IMG/VR virus record: IMGVR_UViG_3300017731_002846
Coordinates: 41,905-105,904 of that record
Length of the DNA: 64,000 nt
Direction: 5' to 3' (one strand)
From: a virus
Part shown: positions 33,926 to 53,770 of the stretch, piece by piece
Layout: the number at the start of each line of letters is the position of its first letter
Numbering within the stretch: the stretch's first letter is position 1
Made by a program: the position numbers and the translations under genes
Notes under the pieces: model-generated
Told to the model about the DNA's origin: nothing
The model's input: the letters and a program-made list of their open reading frames with translations, nothing else
The model's database searches: none

Positions 33926-34918
33926 TTAATAGCCTTCGGACTCGCCACAATTTTGCATTTGATCATAAATCCAAGAGTAAGTTTTCTCGAGGCCATCTTC
34001 AAGTGTGATGGATGGCGCCCACCCAAGAACTTCTTTAATCATGTTGTTGTCACTATTGCGACCACGAACCCCTTGGGGGGCATCTAAATTATAATTTCTT
34101 TTTAACTTAATCCCTCCAATTCCTTCAACAATATCAACAAGCTGATTAATTGATACCATGCGATCACTACCAAGGTTTAATGGGCGAGTGTCGCCTTTCG
34201 CCCACATTAACTCCATACCAGTAATGCAATCATCGATGAACATAAAAGAGCGGGTTTGTTCGCCGTCGCCCCAGATCTCGATTTCATGTTTGCCGCTCAT
34301 TTTAGCCTCAATAACCTTGCGGCATATTGCAGCAGGCGCTTTTTCACGACCACCACGCCATGTTCCGAACGGCCCGTAAACATTATGATAACGGCAGGTA
34401 CGAGAGTCGATACCAAAATCTTTTCCGTAATAATGAGTAATAAGCTCGCTGAATAATTTTTCCCAACCATACCCATCATCTGGATTTGCTGGAAACACAT
34501 CAGACTCTTTGAGAGCTTGAGAAGATTGATCTTTAATCTCAGACTGAATAGAAGCTGGATAAACACAAGCTGTAGAACTATAAAGAACTTCCTTTACACC
34601 ATTGTCTCGTGCGGCCATCATCATGTGAGTTTGAATCAAAACATTCTCCATGCAAAGAGCTTGATTGTTTTCAACAAAACCCATGCCGCCCATATTACAG
34701 GCAAGATTGTAGATTCGATCAACCCCTTTACTTAATTTGTAACAGTGACCCTTCTCCTGCAGATTGCAATCAGCATGATTTTCGGCGGCATTAAATGTCT
34801 GATACCACATGTTGGCCGGCTTGATATCTGCCGCAACAACTTCATGGCCTTGAGCTAATAAATCTTTAACTAAATAACCGGCAATAAAACCGCCTGCTCC
34901 TCCAACTAGTATTTTCAT
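33926..34918 (-). CDS. GDP-mannose 3,5-epimerase
   Basis: 330 residues of the short-chain dehydrogenase/epimerase family. NAD-binding GGAGGFIAGY is near the start. The central YSSTACVYPAS and DGYGWEKLFSEL (Tyr-x3-Lys catalytic pair) and the C-terminal part (RYHNVYGPFGTWRGGREKA, GDGEQTRSFMFIDDC, GVRGRNSDNNMIKEVLGW) match plant GDP-mannose 3,5-epimerase closely. It turns GDP-D-mannose into GDP-L-galactose. It is the last gene of the glycan island on this strand. With gmd and fcl at 62.9-64 kb the phage would make two rare L-sugars from one precursor. Confidence 0.93.
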   Translation of the reverse strand: MKILVGGAGGFIAGYLVKDLLAQGHEVVAADIKPANMWYQTFNAAENHADCNLQEKGHCYKLSKGVDRIYNLACNMGGMGFVENNQALCMENVLIQTHMMMAARDNGVKEVLYSSTACVYPASIQSEIKDQSSQALKESDVFPANPDDGYGWEKLFSELITHYYGKDFGIDSRTCRYHNVYGPFGTWRGGREKAPAAICRKVIEAKMSGKHEIEIWGDGEQTRSFMFIDDCITGMELMWAKGDTRPLNLGSDRMVSINQLVDIVEGIGGIKLKRNYNLDAPQGVRGRNSDNNMIKEVLGWAPSITLEDGLEKTYSWIYDQMQNCGESEGY

Positions 34919-35493
34919 TTTTTTTCTAAGATGTATTGATATTTAAGAGTTTGAAAGTTTGATATTTCATCAAAATGATGTTCAAGAAAAGCATCGATAG
35001 CTGGAATAATTCCAAAATCTAATAACCTAATCTGAGCATCATTATCTTGATATGCATTCCCGCATAAATATCCTCCAGGTTTTAATTTATGCCACCAGGT
35101 TTCCAGATCTTGTTGTATGAAAGAAAAAGAGTGATTCGCATCTAGGTATATCCAGTCTAGCGAATTGTCGTCAAAATTATCAAGGGCATCGATGGAGTGT
35201 TTCTGAATAACATCAACCCTAGAGTCAGTAGAAAATCTGTCAATAACACTTCGCTTGATTTCATCCATATCAGACTGAGGGATGGCATGCCATCTTGCAG
35301 GTATATCGATAATGCTAACCCATGGATCTATTAAATGAAGTTCAGACGGCTCCATTTTTAATATAAATTCAGAAAAATCGCCTTTAAAAACACCAATTTC
35401 AGCACACCTGTATCCAGGTTTTATCTTCTCTAACAAAAAGAGTCTCGAATCATCTAATTCGAATTCATAAGGCAGTGGTAATTGCTTATCCAT
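34915..35493 (-). CDS. SAM-dependent methyltransferase (Methyltransf_24-like)
   Basis: 192 residues with a class I SAM fold: CAEIGVFKGDFSEF is motif I, LHLIDPWVSI the acidic second strand, DWIYLDANHSFSFIQQDL the fourth, and LKPGGYLCGNAY the fifth. The pattern is that of small methyltransferases in glycan gene clusters (Methyltransf_24). It probably O-methylates a sugar of the island's glycan. A close paralogue is at 36083-36625, with a sulfotransferase between. Confidence 0.88.
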   Translation of the reverse strand: MDKQLPLPYEFELDDSRLFLLEKIKPGYRCAEIGVFKGDFSEFILKMEPSELHLIDPWVSIIDIPARWHAIPQSDMDEIKRSVIDRFSTDSRVDVIQKHSIDALDNFDDNSLDWIYLDANHSFSFIQQDLETWWHKLKPGGYLCGNAYQDNDAQIRLLDFGIIPAIDAFLEHHFDEISNFQTLKYQYILEKK

Positions 35494-35498
35494 GATAT

Positions 35499-36086
35499 TT
35501 AAAATTTATAATTATATTTTTTAATGTCTTCTTGATATATATTATACACAACCCTCTTGCTATCTTCTATATATAATTGTCTATAATTTAAATTATTTGT
35601 TGAGTTGACTTTACGAAGATTAGCGTTGGGCAATTTAAGCTTTGCCAAGATGAATGCATAATCTTGTTGAATGTTTTCAAATTTACCAAGAAAGTCAATG
35701 CTTGAGTCGAGGAAATAATTATAGGGTTTGAAGTGAATGCCAGACTCAAAAGAACCTTCTTCTCTTTTCATCAACTTCATAAAATCAGGTATATGATTCA
35801 CAAATTCATTAAAATCCATTTCATTAGCGGCATCCGATATTATACTGTTTCTTTTGTACCAACGATGGCCTTGTTTTAATTTCTGGAAATATTTATATGC
35901 AGAAGCTACTCTATCGTATGGGTTTCTTACAAAAGTAAAAGAAAAATAATCTTTATGTTCAGAATGATGGGATGCTGGCGCATGTCCAGAGAAACCTAAT
36001 GATTCCAGTTTTAATTGCTGGTTTATTGAGCTGCCAGCACATTTTGGGATGTGCACAAAAATGCACTTCAAAGAATGAGAAATCAC
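35499..36086 (-). CDS. PAPS-dependent sulfotransferase (Sulfotransfer_2-like)
   Basis: 195 residues. The PAPS 5'-phosphosulfate loop is FVHIPKCAGSSINQQL near residue 10 and the 3'-phosphate site is FTFVRNPYDRVASAY around residue 52. It transfers sulfate from PAPS to a sugar hydroxyl. It starts at a GTG overlapping the methyltransferase stop and lies between two methyltransferases, consistent with decorating the same glycan. Confidence 0.9.
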   Translation of the reverse strand: MISHSLKCIFVHIPKCAGSSINQQLKLESLGFSGHAPASHHSEHKDYFSFTFVRNPYDRVASAYKYFQKLKQGHRWYKRNSIISDAANEMDFNEFVNHIPDFMKLMKREEGSFESGIHFKPYNYFLDSSIDFLGKFENIQQDYAFILAKLKLPNANLRKVNSTNNLNYRQLYIEDSKRVVYNIYQEDIKKYNYKF

Positions 36087-36625
36087 TTTTTTTGAAAAAC
36101 GAATTGGTCCTTAATTAATTCCGAATGAGAAATCTCGGATTCTTTTTCCTCCCTAAACTCATCAACCGCCTGAACCACTCCAAATTTTAATTGCTCTACT
36201 TGATATTTGCCATCAATGTAATCATCTCCGCATAAGTATCCGCCACTTTTTAGTTTGGGCCACCATCCATTTAAGTCTTCTTTTACAAATTCGTAGCTAT
36301 GGTTGCCGTCAATGTATATCCAGTCTGCAGAACCATCTTTAATATCTGACATGGCATCGGCAGAAAATTTACGGATCAATTGGACTTTATTATTAAAAAA
36401 GAAACGACGACGAACCTTATTATGGATATCGTCAAGTATTTTTTGGTCAGTGTTATGAAGCCTGCCTTCTACATCATTAATTGACTTCCAGGGGTCAATA
36501 AGATAAAGCCTCGATATTGGTAGTTGAGTTATCTGGCGAGAGAGATCCCCCTGCCAAACTCCAACTTCTATGCAGACAGCATCGTGCTTTATAAACTCTA
36601 AAGTAGCATTGTTACCTAAACTCAT
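36083..36625 (-). CDS. SAM-dependent methyltransferase (Methyltransf_24-like), paralogue
   Basis: 180 residues, clearly related to the protein at 34915: CIEVGVWQGDLSRQI, LYLIDPWKSI, DWIYIDGNHSYEFVKEDL and LKSGGYLCGDDYIDG in the same order, ending KDQFVFQKK as the paralogue ends KYQYILEKK. Probably a sugar O-methyltransferase with a different acceptor position. The pair looks like a tandem duplication split by the sulfotransferase gene. Confidence 0.88.
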   Translation of the reverse strand: MSLGNNATLEFIKHDAVCIEVGVWQGDLSRQITQLPISRLYLIDPWKSINDVEGRLHNTDQKILDDIHNKVRRRFFFNNKVQLIRKFSADAMSDIKDGSADWIYIDGNHSYEFVKEDLNGWWPKLKSGGYLCGDDYIDGKYQVEQLKFGVVQAVDEFREEKESEISHSELIKDQFVFQKK

Positions 36626-36627
36626 AA

Positions 36628-37332
36628 TTAATCCTTATATATCATTGTTTTATTGCAGCGAGAAATGTTTGGTATTTTAAATTTATCCTCATTCATATGG
36701 TACACTAAATTAGATGTTAATTTACCCTGATCAAGAGACTCGGCGATATTAATATAGTTTTCTTGAAATGAATACAAATCTTTAATTGGCTTAAAACCCA
36801 TAATCGGATATAACTCTGATAAGGGATAATGCTCTGAAAGTCTATTATTTAAATATAAAAATTCTATAATTTCTTTTTTTATTAGCTGTGGTTGAAATAT
36901 CTGATGGTGGTTTCTTTTTTTAACTAGTTTATATGGGCCAAAGTCATGTTTTGTTTTAAGAAAACTTTTGTGAGCATCCGCATTTTTTGTAAACATAAAC
37001 CCGCCGATATCATTAGAATTAAATTCGTATAAATCTGTGATCATCTGCTTATTCTTGAAATCCAGAATGTATTTGTCATCTTGAGCCCACCATATAAATT
37101 CATTTTCATTAACAACTGAAAGAAGTGTTCTGATAGTCGGTTTAATAGCGCTGTCTGTTTGCAGTAACTTAATTTTATCTGAACCGTATTGGCCGATTAA
37201 GTGTTGAGGTTTAGTCTTGTTCCAGGGAACATAAAATACAAAAGGATTATCTGGCCAACACTTAAAATATGTATGCAGAACATACTCCATAATCGGTATA
37301 TTACGATCAAATGTAAAACAAAGAGCTTTCAT
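36628..37332 (-). CDS. Glycosyltransferase-like protein (GT-A-like)
   Basis: 234 residues. The start (MKALCFTFDRNIPIMEYVLHTYFKCWPDNPFVFYVPW) and the middle EFIWWAQDDKYIL give the strand order and a D-D motif of a GT-A fold. The C-terminal part has no recognisable signature. Neighbours on both sides are glycan enzymes and genes overlap or abut, so a transferase role is likely but the donor is unknown. Confidence 0.6.
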   Translation of the reverse strand: MKALCFTFDRNIPIMEYVLHTYFKCWPDNPFVFYVPWNKTKPQHLIGQYGSDKIKLLQTDSAIKPTIRTLLSVVNENEFIWWAQDDKYILDFKNKQMITDLYEFNSNDIGGFMFTKNADAHKSFLKTKHDFGPYKLVKKRNHHQIFQPQLIKKEIIEFLYLNNRLSEHYPLSELYPIMGFKPIKDLYSFQENYINIAESLDQGKLTSNLVYHMNEDKFKIPNISRCNKTMIYKD

Positions 37333-38099
37333 TAGAACTCAGGCAAGTAATAATCAGGAAACCAATTATTTTTACACTCATTAACTCGATACATTTCTAG
37401 GTCAGGATTAATTATCTTTGCCCAGCTGGAAAAGGCAGAGTGAGATTTTATAACACACCCACACTTTGATAGAAGTAGCATTTCTATAATAGAATTTTTG
37501 GTAATAGTGAGTTTATCGGGATTGGAGGATAATGTCTTGTGGAAATGTGGAGATGAATCGGTTGATAAAACTGCAAGACCTAAATTTTTAAGAAGTCTTA
37601 TAATGGTTTGCTTACTATCTTCATCATCTGATATAACAAATACTGAATCGAAACAACGGCCTTTTAAAAAAGAATTTAATTTTAATAAAAAATTATCCAA
37701 ATCAATGACTTTGCAATCTTTATTGTTGGTTAATTTATCTGTACCTCGAAAGTGAATGCCAAGGCATTTTTGTGGTATAAAATCAATATCAAGTTGATCT
37801 GTGATGCTTGAGCAAAACCGAAAGTACTCATTAAAGTAAAAGTTAGCTTCCTTGAAATCGGTATATTTGTGTCTTTCTATATCTAATAGCTCTATTGTTT
37901 CCGTTGAGCTTTTCGATTGCTTTTTTGGCTTAATAATGTGGGGGATAATTCTATCTTGATCTAACGGGTTTCCGTGGTTTATATTTCTAATATCCCATTC
38001 AGGGTATATTTTATTTTTATGTAAATAAGGTAGTCTTGCATTGATCCAGTTTAAAGACGAACCAAATAAACCTTCCTTGCTCTCATTGAAAATTTTCAT
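37332..38099 (-). CDS. Fucosyltransferase-like glycosyltransferase
   Basis: 255 residues with the GT-B half-site CLGIHFRGTDKL, which resembles the GDP-fucose-binding HxRxxD of alpha-1,6- and O-fucosyltransferases, then FDSVFVISDDEDSKQTI and a late SHSAFSSWAKI region. It probably transfers fucose or a related 6-deoxy sugar from the GDP donor that fcl supplies. It lies in the core of the island with one-base overlaps. Confidence 0.75.
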   Translation of the reverse strand: MKIFNESKEGLFGSSLNWINARLPYLHKNKIYPEWDIRNINHGNPLDQDRIIPHIIKPKKQSKSSTETIELLDIERHKYTDFKEANFYFNEYFRFCSSITDQLDIDFIPQKCLGIHFRGTDKLTNNKDCKVIDLDNFLLKLNSFLKGRCFDSVFVISDDEDSKQTIIRLLKNLGLAVLSTDSSPHFHKTLSSNPDKLTITKNSIIEMLLLSKCGCVIKSHSAFSSWAKIINPDLEMYRVNECKNNWFPDYYLPEF

Positions 38100-38746
38100 T
38101 TGTTGATGTTAAACTTCAATACAGGCTTATCTTTCCATGGATTGATTTGCATTGGTAGTATGCCTGATTTTTCTAAATGCTTGGCTACAGCAAGATCTTC
38201 ATAAATATCGCGATATCTAACTTCTGAAAGATTGTTAAGATTTTTGAATTTATTTAAAGACCGAGAACTAAGCAAATAAGTTGTACCTCCGTCAATCCAG
38301 TCTACATACTCGCCGTTGTATCTTTTGTTATACCAAGGAGAATCTTCTGCAACTCTTCCTATGTGCCAGCCCCGCTTGCCTTCCTTTTGCATTAGTTTGA
38401 AACCTGCATAATCAAGGCCCCCTAGTGAATCTATCAGCCCCTGCTCACGTCCTTCATTCCAGCGCATAAAATCAACATCATCATCTATCTTCCAAAAATA
38501 GTCATACTGATCTGTATAATTATTGGCGGCCAAATATTTATATATGGCGAACATTTTTTCTGGCAGATCTTCGTACAAATCGCGGCATTTTAATTGAATT
38601 ACATTTTCTTCTAATTGTTTTTCTTCTTCGCCACCGACAAAAATTAAGTAATCACCAAGCTTCCATTTGTTGACGCGAGCTTTTATATCTTCAACTCTGT
38701 GGATATACTTATGGCAACACACAAAAACTTTAAATACTTTTTTCAT
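38096..38746 (-). CDS. GT31-like glycosyltransferase
   Basis: 216 residues. YDYFWKIDDDVDFMRW carries the DDD donor-metal motif of beta-1,3-galactosyltransferase-type (GT31-like) enzymes, and RYRDIYEDLAVAKHLEK fits their late EDV acidic motif. The N-terminal strand is VFVCCHKYIHR. Probably a galactosyl- or GlcNAc-type transferase; donor not provable. Confidence 0.72.
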   Translation of the reverse strand: MKKVFKVFVCCHKYIHRVEDIKARVNKWKLGDYLIFVGGEEEKQLEENVIQLKCRDLYEDLPEKMFAIYKYLAANNYTDQYDYFWKIDDDVDFMRWNEGREQGLIDSLGGLDYAGFKLMQKEGKRGWHIGRVAEDSPWYNKRYNGEYVDWIDGGTTYLLSSRSLNKFKNLNNLSEVRYRDIYEDLAVAKHLEKSGILPMQINPWKDKPVLKFNINK

Positions 38747-39372
38747 ACTAGCCAGTGATTAAATTGTTTCATTTTATCCATCTTTCCTTCTATAGAGTCT
38801 ATACTATTATAATGAATAATAGATGGATTCAATTTTTTATGCCATTTATACCATCGATAGCCATTAGGGAAATTATCTCGATTAAGCTTGTGAACCTTTA
38901 AATCAGAATATTTATCTAGTTGTAATTTAGTGTGAATATAATTTTGATCGCCTTGCTCGCCGTCCAGGATAAGTTGCTCGCTCGTGTCAAAAAGATCTAT
39001 CGTTAAATCAGAAGGCTTAGCCATATAAAAGCCCGTACAAAGTCTATCGAAATCATTTTGCCCAACGATATCAAAATTATTAAGCAACTCATACATGTAT
39101 TCTATCGGGTCTTTTAGGTAGAAAATATCCAAATCAGTGCAAAAAACAGTATAACCTTGTTTTAATAATTGATGGGTATATTCTAATTTTTTATATACAG
39201 TATCGAGAAAACCCTGGCTTTGCCAGTCTCCTGATTTGGTATCGACAGTTATTACCTTAACACCAGAAATGATTGAGTTAAAGGAGGATATGTTAGCTAA
39301 AAAATTATCATGAATAGGTTTGTATTCATTATCTCCAGAGCTAATTACAGAAATTAACTTTAAATTAGTCAT
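38743..39372 (-). CDS. GT77-like nucleotide-sugar transferase
   Basis: 209 residues. YTVFCTDLDIFYLKDPIEY has the D-x-D and following DP of the PF03407-type transferases; DFDRLCTGFYMAKPSD and GDQNYIHTKL are the usual later elements. Small soluble GT-A enzyme without a TM helix. It overlaps the genes on both sides. Confidence 0.75.
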   Translation of the reverse strand: MTNLKLISVISSGDNEYKPIHDNFLANISSFNSIISGVKVITVDTKSGDWQSQGFLDTVYKKLEYTHQLLKQGYTVFCTDLDIFYLKDPIEYMYELLNNFDIVGQNDFDRLCTGFYMAKPSDLTIDLFDTSEQLILDGEQGDQNYIHTKLQLDKYSDLKVHKLNRDNFPNGYRWYKWHKKLNPSIIHYNSIDSIEGKMDKMKQFNHWLV

Positions 39373-40162
39373 AGGTTATATGATCTTTGTAAGCCGGATA
39401 ATCTTTATTAAAATTTTTTGATTTCTTTTTACCTTGAATGTCAAGGCCTGATTCAAGCCTGTCTTTAACAAGATCAATATTTTGCAGCAATTCATCAACC
39501 CATTCTTCTCCGTTATGAGCAAAGCTTTGTAGTTTAATAATTAAATCTTCAGGTTTCATGAACCAAGATGCATGCCACCCAGATAATTCTTCTCTTTTAA
39601 TTGGTTGAGGAAATTTAGGGTGATCCCAGCGCCAGCCGCATTGCATGCCTTTCCATCGAGCCATCCTTTTTTTAAGCTCACCCCAATAGGAAAATATAAT
39701 ACTATAATGATCCCATGCGCCAAGATAGCAATCCCATGATACATTAAACCAGTGAGGGCAAACTAAAAGTGGAGCATCTTGAGGCAACTCTTCTTTGTAA
39801 TTTAAGATTAATCTAGGATCAATAATTTCGTCTAAATCACAAAATGAAACAATGTCTTTATCATTCAAGTTAAGAGAGGCCACACCTTTAGATAAGACCT
39901 CATATCTTTGGGCATACTCTCTCTTCCAGTTATCTTTCCCTCGAGTGTTGCTTTTTATATGAACTATCTTGTCGGAAAATTGAGAAAACCTTTTTTTGTT
40001 TTCTTCGAAGTGCAATGGTTTTTTGTTGCCGCTAAAAGTCCATGAGTTTTCATAGACAACAAACTTATCTACATAATCGTTTAATTCATGTAGCCTGAAA
40101 TTAAGTATATCAAGCTCATTATTAAACATAAAGGCATCTATTATCTTAGGCTTCATGACCAT
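39365..40162 (-). CDS. GT17-family glycosyltransferase
   Basis: 265 residues matching the GT17 pattern well: PKIIDAFMFNNELDILNFRL, DKFVVYENSWTFSGNKKPL, DNWKREYAQRYEVL, SFCDLDEIIDP and a late GWHASWFMKPE. GT17 enzymes include the bisecting beta-1,4-GlcNAc transferase of animals, and many bacterial and viral members with unknown acceptors. The ATG at 40162 and the one at 40156 are both possible starts. Confidence 0.85.
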   Translation of the reverse strand: MVMKPKIIDAFMFNNELDILNFRLHELNDYVDKFVVYENSWTFSGNKKPLHFEENKKRFSQFSDKIVHIKSNTRGKDNWKREYAQRYEVLSKGVASLNLNDKDIVSFCDLDEIIDPRLILNYKEELPQDAPLLVCPHWFNVSWDCYLGAWDHYSIIFSYWGELKKRMARWKGMQCGWRWDHPKFPQPIKREELSGWHASWFMKPEDLIIKLQSFAHNGEEWVDELLQNIDLVKDRLESGLDIQGKKKSKNFNKDYPAYKDHITYD

Positions 40163-40767
40163 TTTTTATAATTAAGAAATTTTAAGTCATTCAAATAAAC
40201 ACTCTCTAAGATATCGAGAGATTCTTTGTTTAAAATTTGATTTTTATCCTTATTGACACCTTGATTTTTATGAGGTATAGCAATATTAAACTCAAGTGTA
40301 GACAAAATTTTAGGTAGTTCGTAGCTAATGTTTTCTAGCCTAATTAAATGATCAACAAGAAGGTTGTTTTTAAAGTAAAAAGCATTCCATTGGAGCTGAA
40401 AATGTAAATCTATTTTGTTTGGGTTAGATTTTTTTGTTAAATTTTTAGCAACGAAATCATTTATGTCAGAACATGGGTCTATTCGATTTTTTTTAGCAAG
40501 ATAAAAATAAGCTGAGATGAATTTATCTAAGGGGTGCCTGCATATGGCAAAAGTATTTAATCTCTGCCATTCTTTCTCGTTTAAATATTTTTCAGAATAA
40601 GAAAGCCATAAATCTTTATCATCTTTCTTTACAATAGCTCTATCTCTTAGTATGTTTCTTGTTATGCTAGTTTGAGCTGCTTTATTTATAGGTATATAAG
40701 CAAATGCACCAAGCTTGTCAAAGATAATGGGATTTGGTAATTTAGATAAATATTGAAATTTATCCAT
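40153..40767 (-). CDS. PAPS-dependent sulfotransferase (Sulfotransfer_2-like)
   Basis: 204 residues. AYIPINKAAQTSITRNIL is the PAPS phosphosulfate loop (altered from HIPK-AGT) and FAICRHPLDKFISAYFYL the 3'-phosphate site. The rest is helical, as expected. It is one of at least five sulfotransferases in the island, diverged from the one at 35499, so a different acceptor is likely. Confidence 0.85.
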   Translation of the reverse strand: MDKFQYLSKLPNPIIFDKLGAFAYIPINKAAQTSITRNILRDRAIVKKDDKDLWLSYSEKYLNEKEWQRLNTFAICRHPLDKFISAYFYLAKKNRIDPCSDINDFVAKNLTKKSNPNKIDLHFQLQWNAFYFKNNLLVDHLIRLENISYELPKILSTLEFNIAIPHKNQGVNKDKNQILNKESLDILESVYLNDLKFLNYKKWS

Positions 40768-41560
40768 TTGGAAAAACCTCCGAATAGGCTTTTAATTTTG
40801 CAGAATCTTCAGAAAAGCCTTTTGATATTAGGTCCCATTTTTTATTAAAATATGATTTCCCTAAATGACTTGTAAATTGTTTAGGATTTTTATCGTGATC
40901 TAAATGAAAGCCAATTGTTTGAAGACAAAATTTAATCGACTTACCTAACCTTGATAATCTTCTAGCAATGTCAAAATCTTCTCCGCCCCAACCTTTAAAA
41001 TTTTCATCTAAACCCCCAACTTCATCGAAGTCTTTTCTGGAACAAGACCAATTTCCTCCGTGCATCCTTCTTGCAACGGTATCTTTACCGTCAAAAATGT
41101 AGGGTTTTTCTGTTTTTTCGATAAACCGAGACCTCCTGTCTTTATTTGATAAAGACCTGATAAATGAAAAATTATTCTTGATTAAATCTTTAGTCACAAG
41201 AGGGACTTTATTAATTGGTATTGAAGGGTAAGATCCTGCTACTACATCACCCGCGAATTGTAAATGAGAATAGATGTGATCTGGAGACCATATAATATCT
41301 GAATTACCAAAAATTAATCTATCTCCAGTTGCTAGTTCGGCGCCTCGATTCCAAATATATGCAAGCCTGTAACCCTCATTTGGGCGGTTAAAATATTTTA
41401 TCCCCTCTTTTTTTAAATATTCTACGGTTCCATCTGTTGATCCATCATCAGCTATAATAATCTCAAAATCTTTTTCTGTTTGATACTTCAAGCTTTCAAT
41501 ACTTAACTCAAGTGCGGATAGGTTATTGTAAGACGATAATATGATAGAAACTTTAGGCAT
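40760..41560 (-). CDS. GT2-family glycosyltransferase
   Basis: 266 residues from MPKVSIILSSYNNLSALELS (an in-frame GTG nine bases earlier is less likely). GT2 features: IIIADDGSTDGTVEYL, ATGDRLIFGNSDIIW as the D-x-D region, and GGLDENFKGWGGEDFDIARRL, the acceptor-side GWGGED motif shared with galactosyltransferase-type domains. It is the best-defined GT2 of the island. Confidence 0.92.
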   Translation of the reverse strand: MPKVSIILSSYNNLSALELSIESLKYQTEKDFEIIIADDGSTDGTVEYLKKEGIKYFNRPNEGYRLAYIWNRGAELATGDRLIFGNSDIIWSPDHIYSHLQFAGDVVAGSYPSIPINKVPLVTKDLIKNNFSFIRSLSNKDRRSRFIEKTEKPYIFDGKDTVARRMHGGNWSCSRKDFDEVGGLDENFKGWGGEDFDIARRLSRLGKSIKFCLQTIGFHLDHDKNPKQFTSHLGKSYFNKKWDLISKGFSEDSAKLKAYSEVFPNG

Positions 41561-45088: not shown

Positions 45089-45226
45089 TACTTCAGATAA
45101 TTCATTGCACGAAATAAAACCAATTAATTGATTAAATACATTATGAATCTTATCTTTGTTTTCAATTGCCTCTCCATTTTTATCTTCTAACCAATTAAGG
45201 GTTGATTCAATCCTATCTTGATCTGA

Positions 45227-46058: not shown

Positions 46059-46073
46059 GTATTTATATTACAC
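46059..46073 (-). promoter_or_regulatory. GTGTA-type candidate promoter of the GHKL ATPase gene
   Basis: GTGTAATATAAATAC on the minus strand, starting 16 bp before the ATG at 46057. It also contains a T4-late-like TATAAATA. Confidence 0.6.
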
Positions 46074-46536: not shown

Positions 46537-47216
46537 TCTCTGCTATGCCTGCCTTTCCAGTTAGTTCCCGTGGCACCCAAGTGAACACAGTATTTTCCTT
46601 CTTTTAAATTGATACATTCGCCGCCTTTTCTTTTAAAATTTTCGGAAACAAAAAGATGATCTGATTTGCCAGCATGACCAAAATCTTCAGACATTCGAAT
46701 ATTTTTTCGGAACTTAAAAAGCTGCATATACCCGATGCCAGCAAGATCCGGCCCAGCCCTTCTGTCGACTCCTGTATCATGAGACTTGCCCGACTTAATG
46801 TGCTCTAAATATCTATTGAATTGATTTTCGTTTTGACAGAAAGCTCGAGATAATGAATATAGGTTTTTATCTTGTAAGTTAGATATTAAAGATTTTAATT
46901 CAGGGGGAAAAATAATATCAGAGTCAGTTAAGCAAATTAAATCATTAAAATTTTGATCATTTAAAAAATCAAAAAATTTATTATAAATTGCTCCCTTGTT
47001 GAAGTTGCCATGTTTTTTAACAATGTTATTGTCAACTATAAAGCATTCCACATTATCGTATTGTGAGCATATATCTATGCATTTTTTCTCTTCTCTGGTA
47101 GTGATGACATAAATAGTGTCAAATATTTTAGTATTAAATGGCAAAACTAATCCTAGGAAATCAGAATAGTTTACAGAAATTAATGCTGCAATTAGTTTTT
47201 TATTCAAAGTAGCCAT
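46524..47216 (-). CDS. GT2-like glycosyltransferase
   Basis: 230 residues. FDTIYVITTREEKKCIDICSQY, then GAIYNKFFDFLNDQ and LICLTDSDIIFPPEL form the GT-A fold with its D-x-D; a C-terminal GATGTNWKGRHSREW region is conserved-looking. The donor is unknown. It starts inside the end of the gene at 47204. Confidence 0.75.
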   Translation of the reverse strand: MATLNKKLIAALISVNYSDFLGLVLPFNTKIFDTIYVITTREEKKCIDICSQYDNVECFIVDNNIVKKHGNFNKGAIYNKFFDFLNDQNFNDLICLTDSDIIFPPELKSLISNLQDKNLYSLSRAFCQNENQFNRYLEHIKSGKSHDTGVDRRAGPDLAGIGYMQLFKFRKNIRMSEDFGHAGKSDHLFVSENFKRKGGECINLKEGKYCVHLGATGTNWKGRHSREWKI

Positions 47217-47950
47217 TTCTTTCTGTCTACAAATGATTGCTTTTTGTGCTCAGCCTCTTTTTTTGTGTTTGGGTGCCAAACATATGTTTCTTCCTCTATT
47301 GGTCCCCGCTTTACTAGGGGTTTACTTAATGCTAGTAAAGAGAGTCCTTGATAATTGTAATCTTGATCTGCGATATTATCAATAATTAACTCGTCGCCAA
47401 GTTTATGGGCTTGAGAAGATGGGTGGTTGCTTAATAAAAATTGATTAAAATTTTTCTGGTCAGACCCTTTAATTTCTCTGGTGTTAAGGAATCTATCTAA
47501 ATAGTTTATCGTTCTGTGATTACTGCGAAAGAAAATCCAGCCCATACAGCATGTAAACCCAAAGGCTTCGCGGACTTCTGGTGGAAATGCTTCTCCGTGA
47601 CGAACTGTAGAAACAATAATGTCTTGATTGTTTGACTCTATTAGTTCGGATATTGGATTTTTTAACCAAAGAGCATCAGTATCGGAGTGGATTATATCAA
47701 AACCTTCTTCTAGGTATTTTTTAAATATAAATGTCCTGCGCATTGTATGTTTGCACCCAGAAATCCAGTCGTCATTAAATTCATTAAGGACTCTTGAGTG
47801 ACATCCGTAAGATTTTAAATATTCATCAGACTCAGGGTCTAGGCATAAAACTTCATAATTATCTATAGATAATTTATTAAGATGTTTAACCCAGTTAAGT
47901 GCTATTTCTCTATAAGGGTAATTGCAGAATGATATAATTTTAAGCTTCAT
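47204..47950 (-). CDS. GT77-like nucleotide-sugar transferase
   Basis: 248 residues from MKLKIISFCNYPYREIALNW; a longer frame to 48052 would run over the sulfotransferase gene. FDIIHSDTDALWLKNPISEL is the D-x-D/NP strand of PF03407-type transferases, and CCMGWIFFRSNHRTINYL and GSDQKNFNQFL are the later family elements. The start overlaps the sulfotransferase stop by 11 bases. Confidence 0.75.
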   Translation of the reverse strand: MKLKIISFCNYPYREIALNWVKHLNKLSIDNYEVLCLDPESDEYLKSYGCHSRVLNEFNDDWISGCKHTMRRTFIFKKYLEEGFDIIHSDTDALWLKNPISELIESNNQDIIVSTVRHGEAFPPEVREAFGFTCCMGWIFFRSNHRTINYLDRFLNTREIKGSDQKNFNQFLLSNHPSSQAHKLGDELIIDNIADQDYNYQGLSLLALSKPLVKRGPIEEETYVWHPNTKKEAEHKKQSFVDRKKWLL

Positions 47951-48578
47951 AATCAAATAACTCGAAGTCTTTTTTGTAGTAGTTATATATTTTGCCTCTT
48001 GATGAATCACTCCATTGAAATTCTTCTTTGAAGTTTTTTGAATTGTATGCATGTGGAAGCTTTAATTCCTTTATGCCTATGTTGGTGCAGACTTTATTGA
48101 AATCTTCGTGCAAGTTTTCGAATCTACCAATAAAATCACAAGTGAAGTCAGGGTTGATTTTATCTGTAAAATAGTGGCCGCCATTTAAATGAGGAAAAAA
48201 CTCAAACTGAGGTAGAGTGTGATAAATATCATACTCACTCCAAAGATCTTTGTTAAACATTCTGTACTCATCATCTACCGTTAACTGGACATACTCTTCA
48301 AAAGATACAGACCTCTTTTTTTGATAAAATTCTATATCTGGATGCACTCGATACTGTAACTCGCCCCATTTCCATGCAGAGACAAAACGATCATATGGGT
48401 TGCGAACAAAAGAGAAAACATAATAATCTAAATGATCGTTGAAGAATTTACTAAAACCCCTCTTTCTTAAAACCTTAGATGGTATTTCTGGATCAACTTG
48501 CCCTAAGAATTTCTCGACAGAAGTTCCGGCAGCCTTAGGGATATGTATAAATATGCATTTATGTTTGTGACTAATCAT
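47940..48578 (-). CDS. PAPS-dependent sulfotransferase (Sulfotransfer_2-like)
   Basis: 212 residues from MISHKHKCIFIHIPKAAGTS; a longer frame to 48644 would overlap the fucosyltransferase-like gene. IFIHIPKAAGTSVEKFL is the PAPS loop and FSFVRNPYDRFVSAWKW the 3'-phosphate site, a textbook match. It is close in form to the enzymes at 35499 and 51314. Confidence 0.92.
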   Translation of the reverse strand: MISHKHKCIFIHIPKAAGTSVEKFLGQVDPEIPSKVLRKRGFSKFFNDHLDYYVFSFVRNPYDRFVSAWKWGELQYRVHPDIEFYQKKRSVSFEEYVQLTVDDEYRMFNKDLWSEYDIYHTLPQFEFFPHLNGGHYFTDKINPDFTCDFIGRFENLHEDFNKVCTNIGIKELKLPHAYNSKNFKEEFQWSDSSRGKIYNYYKKDFELFDYEA

Positions 48579-48579
48579 T

Positions 48580-49467
48580 TTAATAACATTTCTCTTGGAA
48601 GTTAATGTGAAAATTTGGTATACCTTTATATAAGCAAAACTCATTAAACCTGCTAAAGTTTTTAAATAGGAAGTTTGTATGCTGTAATAAGTAGAAGTCC
48701 ACTAATGCTTCTTTAGCTATCTTTGTTCTGCCGTATGCTTCTTCCATCTTTAATTCTATGTCTGTAGATTTTTCGCCTTTTTCGTGTCCAGTGCCACAAC
48801 CTGGGGGAGCAAAATACCTCTCTGTTATGATAGTGTTTCCATATTCTTTTTCAAATAAATTAGCAAATTGTCTTGAGTCAGTTGCGAGAAAAAACTTATA
48901 GTTATTGCAAGCCTTTAAGAATGCCCTAGGAGAGCCAAATAGAATATGATCCATCTTCTCTTTAAATATATTAAAGATAGTTTCTATTGCGTTTCTTTCT
49001 CCCTGAAAGCGATTTGAGTTTCCGGTTTTTGGCGGCAAAGCCTCCCCGTTAGATGTTCTGGCATGAACTCCAACTACATAATTTCCAGTAAAGTATTTCT
49101 CGCAAACTTCATTAATTTCGGCGGCAATAGCTCCATGCACATTAATCCGATTAAATGTGTCATAAAATTTCTTCGACTCCTCTTTTGATTTGAGTGGATT
49201 TTTAATAACTAGCCTTGAATCTGAATGAGGTTCTGCTTCTTTTCGGTATTGATCTATACATTCTTTATTTAAAATAACTTCGATATCTGTATCTATGCTT
49301 TGAAAATATTCCCCAAATAAATTCTGATCGCCTTTGCTAGCCCAGTGCCCACGCATGTCAATAAGTATATCTTTTTTATTCTGCTCGCAATACATTAATG
49401 CATTAGTAAGATGCCACAAGGTATCACCCCAACCAGTATCACGAGAAAAATAGTAATAGTTATTCAT
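48580..49467 (-). CDS. NodZ-like fucosyltransferase
   Basis: 295 residues. YFSRDTGWGDTLWHLTNALMY opens the fold, VVGVHARTSNGEALPP is the GDP-fucose-type H-x-R site, and FFLATDSRQFANLFEKEYG is the late TDS strand characteristic of NodZ-like proteins. It probably transfers L-fucose. Its stop is followed at once by the sulfotransferase start. Confidence 0.78.
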   Translation of the reverse strand: MNNYYYFSRDTGWGDTLWHLTNALMYCEQNKKDILIDMRGHWASKGDQNLFGEYFQSIDTDIEVILNKECIDQYRKEAEPHSDSRLVIKNPLKSKEESKKFYDTFNRINVHGAIAAEINEVCEKYFTGNYVVGVHARTSNGEALPPKTGNSNRFQGERNAIETIFNIFKEKMDHILFGSPRAFLKACNNYKFFLATDSRQFANLFEKEYGNTIITERYFAPPGCGTGHEKGEKSTDIELKMEEAYGRTKIAKEALVDFYLLQHTNFLFKNFSRFNEFCLYKGIPNFHINFQEKCY

Positions 49468-49485: not shown

Positions 49486-49656
49486 TCATATTTTAATATC
49501 AATATCTCTTAACCTTTCGTCATCCCAAAGAATAAATTCCCAATCTGGATTGTAAGCCTTCCAGGTTTTTTGCCATTTCAATTCTTGATCAGACAGTGGT
49601 TTGTTGCCTAGATGAATTTGATGAATAACTTTTGGTATTTTAATGTTGTATTTCAT
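49486..49656 (-). pseudogene. Remnant of a GT32 (OCH1-like) glycosyltransferase
   Basis: 56 residues. IPKVIHQIHLGNKPLSDQEL, KTWKAYNPDWEFILWDDE is the N-terminal signature of GT32 enzymes, but the reading frame stops after WDDERLRDIDIKI, before the D-x-D sugar motif that full-length proteins (over 200 residues) carry. It overlaps the GT92-like gene upstream. Likely a truncated leftover of gene turnover in the island. Confidence 0.7.
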
Positions 49657-50527
49657 TCCATTTGAACGAATCTAACCCTAATATATCTTGTTCTGAGTCG
49701 ATAAAGCTTTCTTCTATTTGCGGCTTTTCTATAAAGTTATAATCTTTTAAATAGTGAGCCTTTTCGGTCATTGATTTGTCTTCTGTATATTCCATTTTTT
49801 GTTTGCCGTGATGCTCTATTGAAATTTTTGCATTTTCGTTGACTTTATAATGATAAAAACAAAGATCTTCTTGCTCTATATTTACACTAGTTTTGTTTTT
49901 ACTAGGAGGAAAGTGGGGGGAGTTCTTGTATCTTAGATTAATCTTTTCGGGATTAAATATATATTTAGGTCCAACCCTTGAGAATTTATCCAAGCACTTT
50001 GTCTTTTGTGTTACTAGGCCGCCAACATCGATAAATGCAGATTCAAAGAATTTGCAACCTAATAATAAAATATCTTGTTTATTTTGAGAGGTAAAGCTTT
50101 TTATATTATTGTATTTGTCACTATAATAAAATTCATCACAATCTATAGTTGATACTCTGTCGTGTTTTTTAGCATAATTTTTATAGAAGTGATTAAAAGC
50201 CGTGGCTTGTTCGTAAGCATTGATTTGATGATGCTCTAAATAATTGCCTGTTTTATCCTTGGGTAGCCATTTGATAAAAGTGCAGTAATCGTTGTACCTT
50301 TCCCTGATTTTATCATAGTACTGATATATGACTTGATGAGGAATGTCACCAACTAAAGGTATATCAATTTTCCTTTTAGTATCTGTCTGCAGACAAGGTA
50401 TTCCGGGGTGAGAACTTTCGTAAAAGTAAAAATGATCGACCCCAAAATCAATATGATACTTTAACCATTCTTCAAAGTGAAAAAGATTAGGGCCAAAGAA
50501 TAAATGTGTAAATAAAGCATAATTCAC
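49640..50527 (-). CDS. GT92-like glycosyltransferase
   Basis: 295 residues from a GTG. FHFEEWLKYHIDFGVDHFYFY is the family start (E-W-x-x-Y-H...G-V-x-H-F-x-x-Y), YQYYDKIRERYNDYC and NHFYKNYAKKHDRVSTIDCDEFYY carry the D-x-D, and SPHFPPSKNK lies before the end. GT92 enzymes often transfer galactose in eukaryotes. The stop overlaps the GT32 remnant. Confidence 0.82.
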   Translation of the reverse strand: MNYALFTHLFFGPNLFHFEEWLKYHIDFGVDHFYFYESSHPGIPCLQTDTKRKIDIPLVGDIPHQVIYQYYDKIRERYNDYCTFIKWLPKDKTGNYLEHHQINAYEQATAFNHFYKNYAKKHDRVSTIDCDEFYYSDKYNNIKSFTSQNKQDILLLGCKFFESAFIDVGGLVTQKTKCLDKFSRVGPKYIFNPEKINLRYKNSPHFPPSKNKTSVNIEQEDLCFYHYKVNENAKISIEHHGKQKMEYTEDKSMTEKAHYLKDYNFIEKPQIEESFIDSEQDILGLDSFKWNEIQH

Positions 50528-51324
50528 AGCACAATTTTTTCTTCTCCATACTTATCGAACATTTCTTGATAGTTTCGTATTTTATCGTATGCTTTTTTGC
50601 CAAATACTCTTCTGTCTGTTCCTAGGAAATTTTCGACATTGTTATAATCTACTTCTATGTCAAGGTAATTAATTAATTCATTAAATTTTACTAGCCTTTC
50701 ATCGTAAGTTTCTAAGCCGTAAAGATCTTCGTATTTAGATATATATGAGTTAGGAGGTAACAATGAATGGTAGTGAGGTATATATTTTTTATACCAAGCG
50801 GTACGACGCTTGATGGGGGGCTCTTCAAGCTCTTGGTAGTCAAACGAGTCGACTTTCGACTTGTGCTCTTTTTCTTCACCCAACTGCCAAACTTGAACTT
50901 GATTTGCAAGCTGCCAGGAAATAGCGGGATAAAAAGCACTTTCTCTATATTGAAAAATAATTTTAATACCGTGAGCGACGCAATATTCTAAGAAGTGTTC
51001 ATTGCCTGGCTCAGACACAGTGCACCATACGTGCTTGACCCCGTCAAATTCTTCAAACAGGGAGTCGAGGAAAGGCCAGAGTAAATCACGGTCTTCAGAA
51101 ATATTATTGAATTTATTAAAATAAGGAATGTTTTTAGAGTCTGCTAAATTATTGGGGTCCATGTTATGGCTCTCTATTATATTGGCATACCTTGAATTGT
51201 GCTCAAGGTCTCCTGTTAAGCAAGAAAGAGGCTCGTGAACAATTCTGTCGTTCTTGTTAAGGGCGGAAATTAAGCTAGTTGTACCAGCCCTTTCTTGCCC
51301 GAATATAATAAATTTAGAATCCAT
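50524..51324 (-). CDS. Sulfotransferase-like protein
   Basis: 266 residues. FIIFGQERAGTTSLISALN is a PAPS-loop pattern (R-x-G-T-T-x-L), and KIIFQYRESAFYPAISW a plausible 3'-phosphate R-x-S site. The C-terminal half is helical with SYISKYEDLYG, typical of sulfotransferase kinase-like domains. It is larger than the Sulfotransfer_2 members and closer to the Sulfotransfer_1/3 form. Confidence 0.75.
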   Translation of the reverse strand: MDSKFIIFGQERAGTTSLISALNKNDRIVHEPLSCLTGDLEHNSRYANIIESHNMDPNNLADSKNIPYFNKFNNISEDRDLLWPFLDSLFEEFDGVKHVWCTVSEPGNEHFLEYCVAHGIKIIFQYRESAFYPAISWQLANQVQVWQLGEEKEHKSKVDSFDYQELEEPPIKRRTAWYKKYIPHYHSLLPPNSYISKYEDLYGLETYDERLVKFNELINYLDIEVDYNNVENFLGTDRRVFGKKAYDKIRNYQEMFDKYGEEKIVL

Positions 51325-52000
51325 AATTAAAATAATTTAAATCTTCTACGAAATGACTAGATACTATATCTCTAGTATCTGCTGTATAGTAGTCTTTGTA
51401 GCTTTTTTTCTTCTTGTATTGACTACTGCTGTTTTGCCGCCAATCATTAAATCCAGTATCTTTCGGAAAGCCAAAATGCTTTGACAAGTCTTGCAGGCAA
51501 GTTTTCATGTCTTCAATCTTGTAAAATTGATCCAGGCTAATGGTTTGACCAATCTTAATCCGGTCGACGTAAGGATCGTAATAACCTGCATGAAATTTTT
51601 TGATATTACCTTGGTTATAAGCATAATCTATAAACCCCTCAAAGTCATCTCTGATATAATAATCATGAAACTTTTGAACATAAGGCATCATTGGGGAGTC
51701 AATGTTGTTTTCGACAAAATAATCAAATTTCCAACCGCCTAAATATGTATACATTGATACGACTCGGTCAAATGGATTCCTTACTATAGTAAACTTAAAG
51801 TAATCTTTATATTCTGGTACATCTTTTACTATGCCAGAAAGAGCCCTTTCGCAAGTTGTCCTGTATTTGTTATCATAGTCTTGCTGGTTTTGATTACTTT
51901 CGTATCCAGGCTCTATATTAGATAATAGGTAATGTTTAATAAAGGTTCCCGCAGACTTGGGGATATGTACATAAATGAATTTGTGTTCGTGACTATACAT
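51314..52000 (-). CDS. PAPS-dependent sulfotransferase (Sulfotransfer_2-like)
   Basis: 228 residues. FIYVHIPKSAGTFIKHYLL is the PAPS loop near residue 10 and FTIVRNPFDRVVSMYTYL the 3'-phosphate site near residue 70. It is clearly homologous to the enzymes at 35499 and 47940. It overlaps the genes on both sides. Confidence 0.92.
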   Translation of the reverse strand: MYSHEHKFIYVHIPKSAGTFIKHYLLSNIEPGYESNQNQQDYDNKYRTTCERALSGIVKDVPEYKDYFKFTIVRNPFDRVVSMYTYLGGWKFDYFVENNIDSPMMPYVQKFHDYYIRDDFEGFIDYAYNQGNIKKFHAGYYDPYVDRIKIGQTISLDQFYKIEDMKTCLQDLSKHFGFPKDTGFNDWRQNSSSQYKKKKSYKDYYTADTRDIVSSHFVEDLNYFNYGF

Positions 52001-52844
52001 CGATCTTATCCATCACTTCTGGGTTATCTAAATTGTCGAGTAAAAATTGCTTTCCGTCCTCACCACAAAGGTGACAAAGGTAGAATTTTTTATTGGCATC
52101 TCCTTTTTGAAAACAAGCCTGGTAGTTAGCATTCCATTCCCACTGAAGTGGCTTATGGTAATCTGTAACATCGGTTTTAGCATAAGCATAACCATACATA
52201 TCTTGATCTATAAAGTCTTTGGGCTCGCCGAAAACTTGAAGGACTGGATTATCTATTAAGTTATGATCCTTTAGGAATTGAACTATGTTATATTGGTCAG
52301 GTAAGACTGATACCATTTTTTCTACTATTCTTCTACTCATAATATAGCAGCCAAGATTAAGATTATATTTTGGGATTTTACGGTTTGTTTTTTCATTTAA
52401 CCAATAAACATCTTCATCTTTAGGTATCACTTTAAGGTAATCTTTCATGAAGGTTTCATTTTTAGCCACAACAGCTTCATTGAATCCGTATTGCATCATG
52501 AAATCATCATCTTTGTGAAATTCAAAAATATCAACAGCGTCCTTACTAACAACCATATCTAGATCAAGCAGCGCGAATTTATCATAATCCGTCTTCATGA
52601 ACTCATGAAGAAAAAGAATCTTAACAAAAGTGCTTTTTTGGTAATGAGTGAAATCATATTGATGTATCTCTTGGTACCCAGGAAAATCATTCATGGAAAT
52701 GATTTTTAAATCACATCCGATTTTCTCGGCATACTTTTCAAGCGAACCCAAACAATGGGGAACCCAAGCTACATCTTTATACCCAGGATTAGCAAAATCA
52801 GTATCCTTGGGTAGGTCGTTAATCACATATATTACATTACTCAT
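51993..52844 (-). CDS. GT-A glycosyltransferase
   Basis: 283 residues. YDKFALLDLDMVVSKDAVDIF is a D-x-D strand, YNLNLGCYIMSRRIVEKM the usual later strand, and FIDQDMYGYAYAK an acidic segment as in GT8/GT2-like enzymes. A late HLCGEDGKQFL stretch has His and Cys. Donor unknown. Confidence 0.75.
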   Translation of the reverse strand: MSNVIYVINDLPKDTDFANPGYKDVAWVPHCLGSLEKYAEKIGCDLKIISMNDFPGYQEIHQYDFTHYQKSTFVKILFLHEFMKTDYDKFALLDLDMVVSKDAVDIFEFHKDDDFMMQYGFNEAVVAKNETFMKDYLKVIPKDEDVYWLNEKTNRKIPKYNLNLGCYIMSRRIVEKMVSVLPDQYNIVQFLKDHNLIDNPVLQVFGEPKDFIDQDMYGYAYAKTDVTDYHKPLQWEWNANYQACFQKGDANKKFYLCHLCGEDGKQFLLDNLDNPEVMDKIDV

Positions 52845-53770
52845 AATTTTGTTACCTCCAAATCTTCGTCTAGTAAACCCCAGTTGTCGGGGTTAGGGTT
52901 ATCTATTATCTTATTTCTTATATCAAGAGAGTTTACTTTTCTTTCTCCTTGATGTTGGGCATGTGGCTGTGTTGAGTCATTAGATGCACCTTCATTTCTT
53001 TCATGATATTGGTGGTAAAAGTCTCCATCGACAGCTAAACATAAGTTATATATATCTTCGTGCTGGGCGATTCGATTTAAAAATTCAGTATCCATGCTAT
53101 TCATGTAAACAAGATCTTCGTTGAAACCCTTATGCTCTAAGTAGCAATCTCTGTCCACCATCATAACCCCAACAGCCCCGCCGTAAAAAGGAAAAATTTC
53201 TTCATTAGGCATTAAGCGGCTATAGTGATTGTGCTCGTGGCAAATGTCTACTTTTTGAGACAACTCTTGGTCGTATATGAAATCCCTAAATACAGAATGA
53301 TGGGATTGCTCTTCATTAAGATTCCTGCGACTAGAGAAAGCCGCACGAGGCCAAGGCCAGCCATAATCTTTCACTTCATATTCATGATAGAACCAATCCA
53401 TAAATCTCTGGCCAACTAGTGTATCTTGATCGATACGAGCAAAATGCTTGCCCTCTTGATGCCGGAAGCCAACATTCATTGCATGAACTTCTGAAAACGG
53501 AGAGTCTCCTTGGTGCTTGTCTGCAATATCAGGCGGAACCGTAACTATTTTAAGTAAGCCCTGTGTCTCTGGAGCAAAGCGAGAAGATAGGGATTCTTTA
53601 AGCGAGCCACTTCTGGAGCACCAGTCAACAAGAATCACTTCAGATTCATCGACCACATTGTTTTTGCGAATTATTTCACAAGTATGGTTGACGGTATTAA
53701 GACAACGACCAACGGAATCTCCATTGTAATTATCGTTGCGAGAAACTAAGATATAAGATATTCTTTTCAT
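52841..53770 (-). CDS. GT2-like glycosyltransferase
   Basis: 309 residues. RISYILVSRNDNYNGDSVGR opens a GT-A fold, VILVDWCSRSG is the second strand, and KHFARIDQDTLVGQRFMDWF holds the D-x-D; FPFYGGAVGVMMVDRDCYLEHKGFNEDLVYM follows as in galactosyl-type GT2 enzymes. It is the first gene of the glycan island in transcription order here and overlaps the gene before it by a few bases. Confidence 0.82.
   Translation of the reverse strand: MKRISYILVSRNDNYNGDSVGRCLNTVNHTCEIIRKNNVVDESEVILVDWCSRSGSLKESLSSRFAPETQGLLKIVTVPPDIADKHQGDSPFSEVHAMNVGFRHQEGKHFARIDQDTLVGQRFMDWFYHEYEVKDYGWPWPRAAFSSRRNLNEEQSHHSVFRDFIYDQELSQKVDICHEHNHYSRLMPNEEIFPFYGGAVGVMMVDRDCYLEHKGFNEDLVYMNSMDTEFLNRIAQHEDIYNLCLAVDGDFYHQYHERNEGASNDSTQPHAQHQGERKVNSLDIRNKIIDNPNPDNWGLLDEDLEVTKL

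What the first reader, a model, noticed from the sequence alone, without database searches (positions are those of the whole stretch)
33926..53770. A 20-kb phage island that could build a sulfated, methylated, fucose-containing glycan
In sequence: about fifteen glycosyltransferase-like genes of many families (GT2, GT8, GT17, GT31-, GT77-, GT92-like, three fucosyltransferase-like), five clear and one possible PAPS sulfotransferase, three methyltransferase-like genes and GDP-mannose 3,5-epimerase, all one strand and mostly overlapping. gmd, fcl, an epimerase and a UDP-sugar dehydrogenase follow at 61-64 kb, and an APS-kinase-like protein at 3.1 kb could feed PAPS. Known: phages often carry a few glycosyltransferases; many sulfotransferases plus L-sugar synthesis in one phage is unusual. 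Inference: the product decorates virion or host surface, and might imitate a sulfated fucan such as marine verrucomicrobia degrade.
Basis: partly seen in the sequence, partly recalled or inferred. Interest (0 to 1): 0.88.

Follow-up and report, generated by a model that had tools for sequence, protein, structure and literature searches.

The report
Phage gene islands building sulfated glycans
An uncultured tailed phage carries two clusters of sugar-joining, sulfate-adding and methyl-adding enzyme genes, with helper genes for fucose and L-galactose donors and for recycling the spent sulfate carrier, so it can probably build its own sulfated sugar coat, most likely on the virus particle, in a version that differs from strain to strain.

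Summary
The island is real and encodes functional proteins. The window lies in a 106-kb fragment of a myovirus from an uncultured lineage. In 33926-54444, Pfam supports 8 glycosyltransferases (3 more weakly, 4 by motif only), 4 PAPS sulfotransferases (a fifth by motif only), 2 methyltransferases and a true GDP-mannose 3,5-epimerase.

The "APS kinase" is an APS-kinase-like/NMNAT-like fusion that relatives without sulfotransferases also carry.

Additions, outside the window: a second cluster (record 27001-37522) with seven more sulfotransferases, beside a pyrophosphatase and CysQ, which clears the sulfotransferase by-product PAP.

Fourteen core genes are colinear in four related phages and under purifying selection; the genes between them turn over even between strains 98.4% identical nearby. 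No flippase, polymerase, integrase or base hydroxymethylase was found.

Best reading: a sulfated, methylated glycan with L-fucose and L-galactose or L-gulose, built in the cytosol and attached to virion proteins, as chloroviruses do. Glycan building is well supported; the virion as acceptor is inferred. Smaller one-sulfotransferase versions exist in cyanophage ACG-2014f.

The parts
33926..34918 (-). GDP-mannose 3,5-epimerase (GDP-L-galactose / GDP-L-gulose supply); one conserved end of the island
   Evidence: E=5e-96 to solved GME 8sg0 and 5e-95 to 2c59, with Cys, Tyr-x3-Lys and REKAPAA-Lys conserved; 87-93% identical in three relatives
34915..35493 (-). sugar O-methyltransferase-like (Methyltransf_24)
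   Evidence: E=1.4e-14; island core gene
35499..36086 (-). PAPS sulfotransferase (Sulfotransfer_2)
   Evidence: E=2.4e-14; PAPS-binding K, R, S invariant; island core gene
36083..36625 (-). methyltransferase (Methyltransf_24)
   Evidence: E=8e-18
36628..37332 (-). putative glycosyltransferase, motif only
   Evidence: no family match
37332..38099 (-). fucosyltransferase-like (GT11-like), weak
   Evidence: Pfam E=0.035; PHROG glycosyltransferase E=8e-4
38096..38746 (-). GT31-like glycosyltransferase
   Evidence: Galactosyl_T at its cut-off of 23 bits; island core gene
38743..39372 (-). Nucleotid_trans (GT77-like) glycosyltransferase
   Evidence: E=2e-19; variable gene
39365..40162 (-). GT17 glycosyltransferase
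   Evidence: E=1.7e-27; variable gene
40153..40767 (-). PAPS sulfotransferase, borderline
   Evidence: 22.1 bits against cut-off 22; 78% in G034
40760..41569 (-). GT2/GT7C-like glycosyltransferase
   Evidence: E=6.5e-24; island core gene
41553..42215 (-). conserved core protein, putative GT-A by motif
   Evidence: no family match; 48-89% in relatives
42218..42739 (-). unknown; sulfotransferase reading not supported
42741..43604 (-). NodZ-family fucosyltransferase
   Evidence: E=2.5e-12
43591..44340 (-). glycosyltransferase, weak
   Evidence: Nucleotid_trans E=0.007
44333..46057 (-). GHKL-type ATPase gene split by one in-frame TAA at 45227-45229; 581-583 aa and unsplit in relatives
   Evidence: HATPase_c_3 E=7e-6
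46063..46536 (-). conserved core protein, function unknown
   Evidence: 64-88% in relatives; no convincing family match
46524..47216 (-). GT2-like, weak
   Evidence: E=4.5e-4, below cut-off
47204..48052 (-). Nucleotid_trans (GT77-like) glycosyltransferase, island core
   Evidence: E=1.1e-15; 83-89% in relatives
47940..48644 (-). PAPS sulfotransferase
   Evidence: E=1.5e-18; translation
48580..49467 (-). NodZ-family fucosyltransferase, island core
   Evidence: E=3.6e-15; 80-88% in relatives, omega 0.046
49640..50527 (-). GT92 glycosyltransferase; replaced by a GT14-family gene in near-identical strain L139
   Evidence: 25.7 bits against cut-off 23
50524..51324 (-). sulfotransferase-like by motif, unproven; island core
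   Evidence: GQERAGTTS loop invariant in 17 homologues; AlphaFold model pLDDT 70, fold search inconclusive
51314..52000 (-). PAPS sulfotransferase, island core
   Evidence: E=3.7e-16; PHROG galactose-3-O-sulfotransferase E=5e-13
51993..52844 (-). conserved core protein, GT-A-like DLD motif
   Evidence: 85-95% in relatives, omega 0.020; no family match
52841..53770 (-). conserved core protein, GT-A-like DQD motif; marker of the island
   Evidence: 80-100% identical in 16 IMG/VR contigs; omega 0.030; no family match
53767..54444 (-). conserved protein at the upstream end of the island, unknown fold
   Evidence: 68-86% in relatives; model not confident
61184..62038 (-). short UDP-sugar 6-dehydrogenase
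   Evidence: E=6.7e-30 to UDP-glucose 6-dehydrogenase 7kws, GGTCFPKD motif kept, C-terminal domain missing
62014..62922 (-). NAD-dependent sugar epimerase or decarboxylase, not gmd
62932..63876 (-). GDP-L-fucose synthase (fcl)
   Evidence: NF047922 E=4e-132
63891..64000 (-). 3' end of gmd, cut by the end of the contig
   Evidence: gmd model residues 304-339; full-length matches in G034, G001, G003, G046, G048
3150..3956 (+). APS-kinase-like domain fused to an NMNAT-like domain; a PAPS role is possible only
   Evidence: APS_kinase E=1.9e-13

Best explanation
The phage encodes its own cytosolic glycan-building system. Host GDP-mannose is turned into GDP-L-fucose (gmd, fcl) and GDP-L-galactose or GDP-L-gulose (GME); UDP-sugars may pass through the short dehydrogenase and the second epimerase. 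Soluble glycosyltransferases assemble an oligosaccharide; methyltransferases and sulfotransferases decorate it; phage CysQ hydrolyses the inhibitory by-product PAP and the phage pyrophosphatase removes pyrophosphate. A conserved gene set makes a common core, and exchangeable genes between the core genes give each strain its own decorations. The most likely acceptor is a virion protein, glycosylated in the cytoplasm before lysis, as in chloroviruses. Shown here: gene content, conservation, purifying selection, cassette exchange, absence of an export apparatus in the sequence held. Inferred: the sugars made, their order, PAPS turnover, and the virion as acceptor.
For: Family matches. PAPS-binding residues invariant in ten aligned sulfotransferases. 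Eleven Sulfotransfer_2 matches in the record, seven of them in a second cluster at record 27001-37522 next to a pyrophosphatase and near CysQ. Sulfotransferases in 26 of 49 lineage records and in all 12 further island contigs. CysQ in 8 records, each with at least two sulfotransferases (Fisher p=0.005 over all 49, not significant in the 18 records of 100 kb or more; sulfotransferase counts higher with CysQ in those 18, p=0.003). Sulfotransferase genes lie within 6 kb of CysQ in L178, L180, L181 and L184. Fourteen core genes colinear in four phages, omega 0.02-0.10 where estimable. Strain L139, 98.4% identical over 13 kb, has a GT14 gene in place of GT92 and adds GT90 and UDP-galactopyranose mutase genes. 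No protein with more than 4 membrane-like segments in seven phage records, against 6-9 in E. coli Wzy/Wzx controls; no membrane anchor on the firmly assigned glycosyltransferases. No integrase and no thymidylate-synthase-type enzyme in 12 records. Chlorovirus precedent: soluble viral glycosyltransferases, viral GMD and GMER, conserved core plus virus-specific decoration, made in the cytoplasm (PMC5408694).
Against: No acceptor protein, glycan or virion has been seen. Host flippases could export the product. Several records with sulfotransferases show no CysQ (for example G003, G009, G012, G024, G039 and 12 further fragments), although fragments may simply miss it. Five conserved core proteins have no identified fold. 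No phage ATP sulfurylase was found, so APS must come from the host. The record is incomplete and the capsid gene was not identified.
Confidence: 0.55

Rival explanations
1. The product changes the host surface during infection, for example masking receptors against superinfection or remodelling lipopolysaccharide or capsule, using host export machinery.
For: Cyanophages carry smaller cassettes with nucleotide-sugar and methyltransferase genes; the exchange of genes between strains resembles O-antigen loci.
Against: No flippase- or polymerase-like membrane protein in seven records and no integrase, so no sign of lysogenic conversion.
Confidence: 0.25
2. The enzymes glycosylate phage DNA bases as a shield against restriction.
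For: Phage glycosyltransferases are known to hypermodify DNA (Pyle 2024, cited in PMC12619734).
Against: No thymidylate-synthase-type hydroxymethylase in 12 lineage records; eleven sulfotransferases and so many diverse transferases exceed what any base modification known to me needs.
Confidence: 0.04
3. The sulfotransferases act on host small molecules or act separately, and the islands are gene collections without one product.
For: A single phage sulfotransferase occurs outside a glycan cluster (Stenotrophomonas phage DLP6); many genes are strain-specific.
Against: Conserved gene order, purifying selection and co-location with glycosyltransferases and deoxysugar genes in many contigs.
Confidence: 0.12

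Closest known systems
Cyanophage glycan cassettes (Synechococcus phages ACG-2014f, S-SSM7; Prochlorococcus phage P-TIM68)
   Same: ACG-2014f has a run of nucleotide-sugar epimerase, glycosyltransferase and methyltransferase genes and one sulfotransferase beside a glycosyltransferase, followed by a tail-fibre gene. S-SSM7 and P-TIM68 encode GME-like epimerases at 41-43% identity.
   Different: About 10 kb with one sulfotransferase in ACG-2014f, and none found in S-SSM7 and P-TIM68 (whose built-in controls were also empty); here two islands, eleven sulfotransferases, CysQ and a different phage lineage.
Chlorovirus (PBCV-1) cytoplasmic capsid glycosylation
   Same: Soluble virus-encoded glycosyltransferases, virus-encoded GMD and GMER, conserved core with virus-specific decorations (PMC5408694).
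   Different: Eukaryotic alga host; the passages of the review read here mention no sulfation; acceptor proven there, not here.
Moumouvirus australiensis glycosylation cluster
   Same: Bifunctional sulfurylase/APS kinase and a sulfotransferase within a sugar-gene cluster, suggested sulfated sugar (PMC10117803).
   Different: One sulfotransferase; giant virus of amoebae.
Mycobacteriophage virion glycosylation
   Same: Glycans on phage capsid and tail-tube proteins (Freeman 2023, as cited in PMC12619734).
   Different: From general knowledge, few glycosyltransferases and no sulfation; that paper was not readable here.

Membership tests
Virus-encoded cytosolic virion glycosylation (chlorovirus type) | Several soluble viral glycosyltransferases without signal peptide or membrane anchor | tested here: met
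   only 46524, a weak GT2 match, has one membrane-like stretch
Virus-encoded cytosolic virion glycosylation (chlorovirus type) | Viral GDP-L-fucose pathway | tested here: met
   fcl complete; gmd cut by the contig end here but full-length in relatives
Virus-encoded cytosolic virion glycosylation (chlorovirus type) | Conserved core genes with strain-variable decorations | tested here: met
Virus-encoded cytosolic virion glycosylation (chlorovirus type) | Glycan on a virion protein | not testable with these tools
   needs mass spectrometry of virions
Wzx/Wzy-type surface polysaccharide locus | Flippase and polymerase membrane proteins | tested here: not met
   at most 4 membrane-like segments in any protein of seven records; E. 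coli controls 6-9
Lysogenic (serotype) conversion | Temperate phage with integrase | tested here: not met
   no PF00589 match in 12 records, controls positive
Phage DNA base hypermodification | Hydroxymethylating thymidylate-synthase homologue | tested here: not met
   no PF00303 match in 12 records, controls positive
Sulfotransfer_2 (PF03567) | Score over cut-off and PAPS-binding residues | tested here: met
   40153 only marginally; 50524 and 42218 are not members by this test
GDP-mannose 3,5-epimerase | Strong match to solved GME and catalytic Cys, Tyr, Lys residues | tested here: met
CysQ (TIGR01331) | Score at the curated cut-off of 228.8 bits | tested here: inconclusive
   228.3 bits here, over the cut-off in four of the eight records with a match; best PDB match is a CysQ at 1e-58
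APS kinase (TIGR00455) | Score over the curated cut-off | tested here: not met
   46.6 against 138.7 bits; P-loop and the DxxR / KDLGFxxEDR segment kept, later region not matched

The most novel reading that the evidence does not exclude
A phage lineage that autonomously builds a densely sulfated, strain-specific glycan coat on its virion, with its own recycling of the sulfate-carrier by-product: a phage counterpart of a sulfated surface polysaccharide, exchanged like a serotype locus.
Probability: 0.4. Interest if true: 0.86.

Novelty: new variant of a known kind. Interest (0 to 1): 0.7.

Why it matters
[quoted passage not shown] Here they are numerous, embedded in conserved glycan islands and in places linked to CysQ, which gives them a specific testable role. 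A sulfated virion coat would bear on how aquatic phages adsorb, avoid decay or resemble host and algal polysaccharides, and would extend autonomous virion glycosylation from giant algal viruses to tailed phages on a comparable scale. The islands are also a source of small soluble versions of enzyme families best known as eukaryotic membrane proteins.

Tried and rejected
APS-kinase-like protein as a firm PAPS source: not kept, since it occurs without sulfotransferases and in unrelated siphophages; its one close link is a two-gene minus-strand pair with CysQ in G020. ATP sulfurylase: none in 14 records. Host from the nearest bacterial homologues (SAR86, 55-58%): not convincing; the two SAR86 genomes tested had no Sulfotransfer_2 match, and the 74% match in a Halobacteriovorax MAG lies on a contig with phage-like genes. 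Structure prediction for 53767 failed (pLDDT 44); for 50524 it was moderate and its fold search inconclusive. Profile-profile comparisons of unannotated core proteins with annotated ones found nothing, with too few sequences. PDB profile searches for 53767, 52841 and 50524 found nothing useful. CysQ association in large records alone is not significant by presence/absence. In one search the sulfotransferase count for this record was entered as 13; the right figure, 11, was used.
Full report
What the window is. It is positions 41905-105904 of a 105,904-base IMG/VR virus record. Tail sheath, DnaE-like polymerase, DnaB, primase and UvsX and both ribonucleotide reductase subunits mark a contractile-tailed phage. 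Its polymerase is at best about 33% identical to that of any phage in the 50,697-record collection but 56-89% identical in 55 IMG/VR loci, whose contigs reach 205 kb, so this record is probably about half a genome.

The island. GME is strong: E=5e-96 to a solved GME with the catalytic Cys, Tyr and Lys conserved. The sulfotransferases keep the PAPS-binding Lys, Arg and Ser.

Outside the window. Record 27001-37522 (L002:8002-18523) holds a second minus-strand cluster: seven Sulfotransfer_2 genes, GT10 fucosyltransferase-like, GT7C-like and Fringe-like transferases and others. On one side lie an inorganic pyrophosphatase and a nucleotidyltransferase; on the other, after a 986-aa protein, CysQ. 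The record holds eleven Sulfotransfer_2 matches in all. CysQ removes PAP, the by-product of every PAPS sulfotransferase reaction (established biochemistry). In the lineage, CysQ was found in 8 of 49 records, all with at least two sulfotransferases; sulfotransferase genes lie within 6 kb of CysQ in L178, L180, L181 and L184, so the CysQ-pyrophosphatase stretch behaves as an insertion site for sulfotransferase cassettes. The association is significant over all records (p=0.005) and by counts in large ones (p=0.003), but not by presence/absence in large ones; the records are related and incomplete, so these are guides only. Twelve further island contigs all have sulfotransferases but none shows CysQ.

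Conserved core, variable decorations. Across the four phages G000, G034, G001 and G046 the island spans 20-31 kb with 27-39 genes; fourteen genes are shared by all four in the same order and 31 gene groups occur in only one. Core genes show omega 0.02-0.10 between G000 and G034 where dS can be estimated. Most genes of cluster B have lower synonymous divergence (dS about 0.3-1.1) than the polymerase and UvsX genes, where dS is saturated, which suggests recent exchange. Contig L139 is 98.4% identical to the window over 13 kb and then departs inside the island: GT92 is replaced by a GT14-family gene, and GT90 and UDP-galactopyranose mutase genes are added. Variable genes tested in L139 and G034 were again mostly glycosyltransferases (GT11, GT14, GT32-like, GT61, GT90, Caps_synth; GT25 weakly).

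Where the glycan goes. No protein in seven phage records has more than four membrane-like segments by a hydropathy test that finds 6-9 in E. coli Wzy and Wzx, and the firmly assigned transferases lack membrane anchors. There is no integrase and no thymidylate-synthase-type enzyme. A glycan made by soluble enzymes without an exporter should end on something in the cytoplasm; virion proteins are the natural acceptor, as shown for chloroviruses (PMC5408694). Host export cannot be excluded.

The APS-kinase-like gene. Its first half resembles APS kinase (E=1.9e-13) and its second an NMN adenylyltransferase. It occurs in a 205-kb relative without sulfotransferase matches (G032), in isolated siphophages where it lies across two annotated genes, and as two separate genes in SAR86. 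It may supply PAPS, but this is not established; in G020 it forms a pair with CysQ.

What is known. Cyanophage ACG-2014f carries a glycan cassette with one sulfotransferase, OM43-type phage genomes carry sulfotransferases of stated unclear function, and moumouvirus has one in a sugar cluster. The kind, a virus-encoded glycan factory, is known; the scale of sulfation, the CysQ link, the paired islands and the strain-level exchange make this a new variant.

Confidence. That the islands build a sulfated glycan: about 0.85. That it is attached to the virion: about 0.55. Exact sugars, host and purpose: open.

Noticed in passing
window 4489-4852 (-): Phage-encoded tmRNA (RF00023, 114.9 bits), missed by ARAGORN in the window; also present in the relatives G032, G034, G001, G046, G020 and G009, in several of them close to the APS-kinase-like gene.
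   Followed up: partly
L002:8002-18523 and L002:3767-4549 (record 27001-37522 and 22766-23548): Second sulfotransferase and glycosyltransferase cluster and CysQ outside the window; used in the argument.
   Followed up: yes
window 44333-46057 (-): GHKL ATPase gene inside the island interrupted by one in-frame TAA; near-identical strain L139 has an open frame there, so strain-specific or a sequencing error. Its role inside a glycan island is unexplained.
   Followed up: partly
window 3956-4258 (+): Ferredoxin-like protein with Cys motifs directly behind the APS-kinase-like gene, not found in the six relatives compared.
   Followed up: no
L002:4920-7880 (-): 986-aa repeat protein beside the second cluster, omega 0.27 between G000 and G034; candidate surface or adhesion protein.
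   Followed up: no
window 8058-11123 (-): Fast-evolving 1021-aa protein next to tail genes, 32% in G034 where the polymerase is 89%; candidate receptor-binding protein.
   Followed up: no
L139:15854-16849: UDP-galactopyranose mutase inserted in the island of a near-identical strain, so some strains may add galactofuranose.
   Followed up: partly
window 4889-6013 (-) and L001:13022-14041 (-): A UvdE-type UV endonuclease and a paralogue of it elsewhere in the record.
   Followed up: no
L001:14617-14973 (-): Small cupin matching the mannose-6-phosphate isomerase end of GMP_PMI (E=1.8e-32); it could feed GDP-mannose supply.
   Followed up: no
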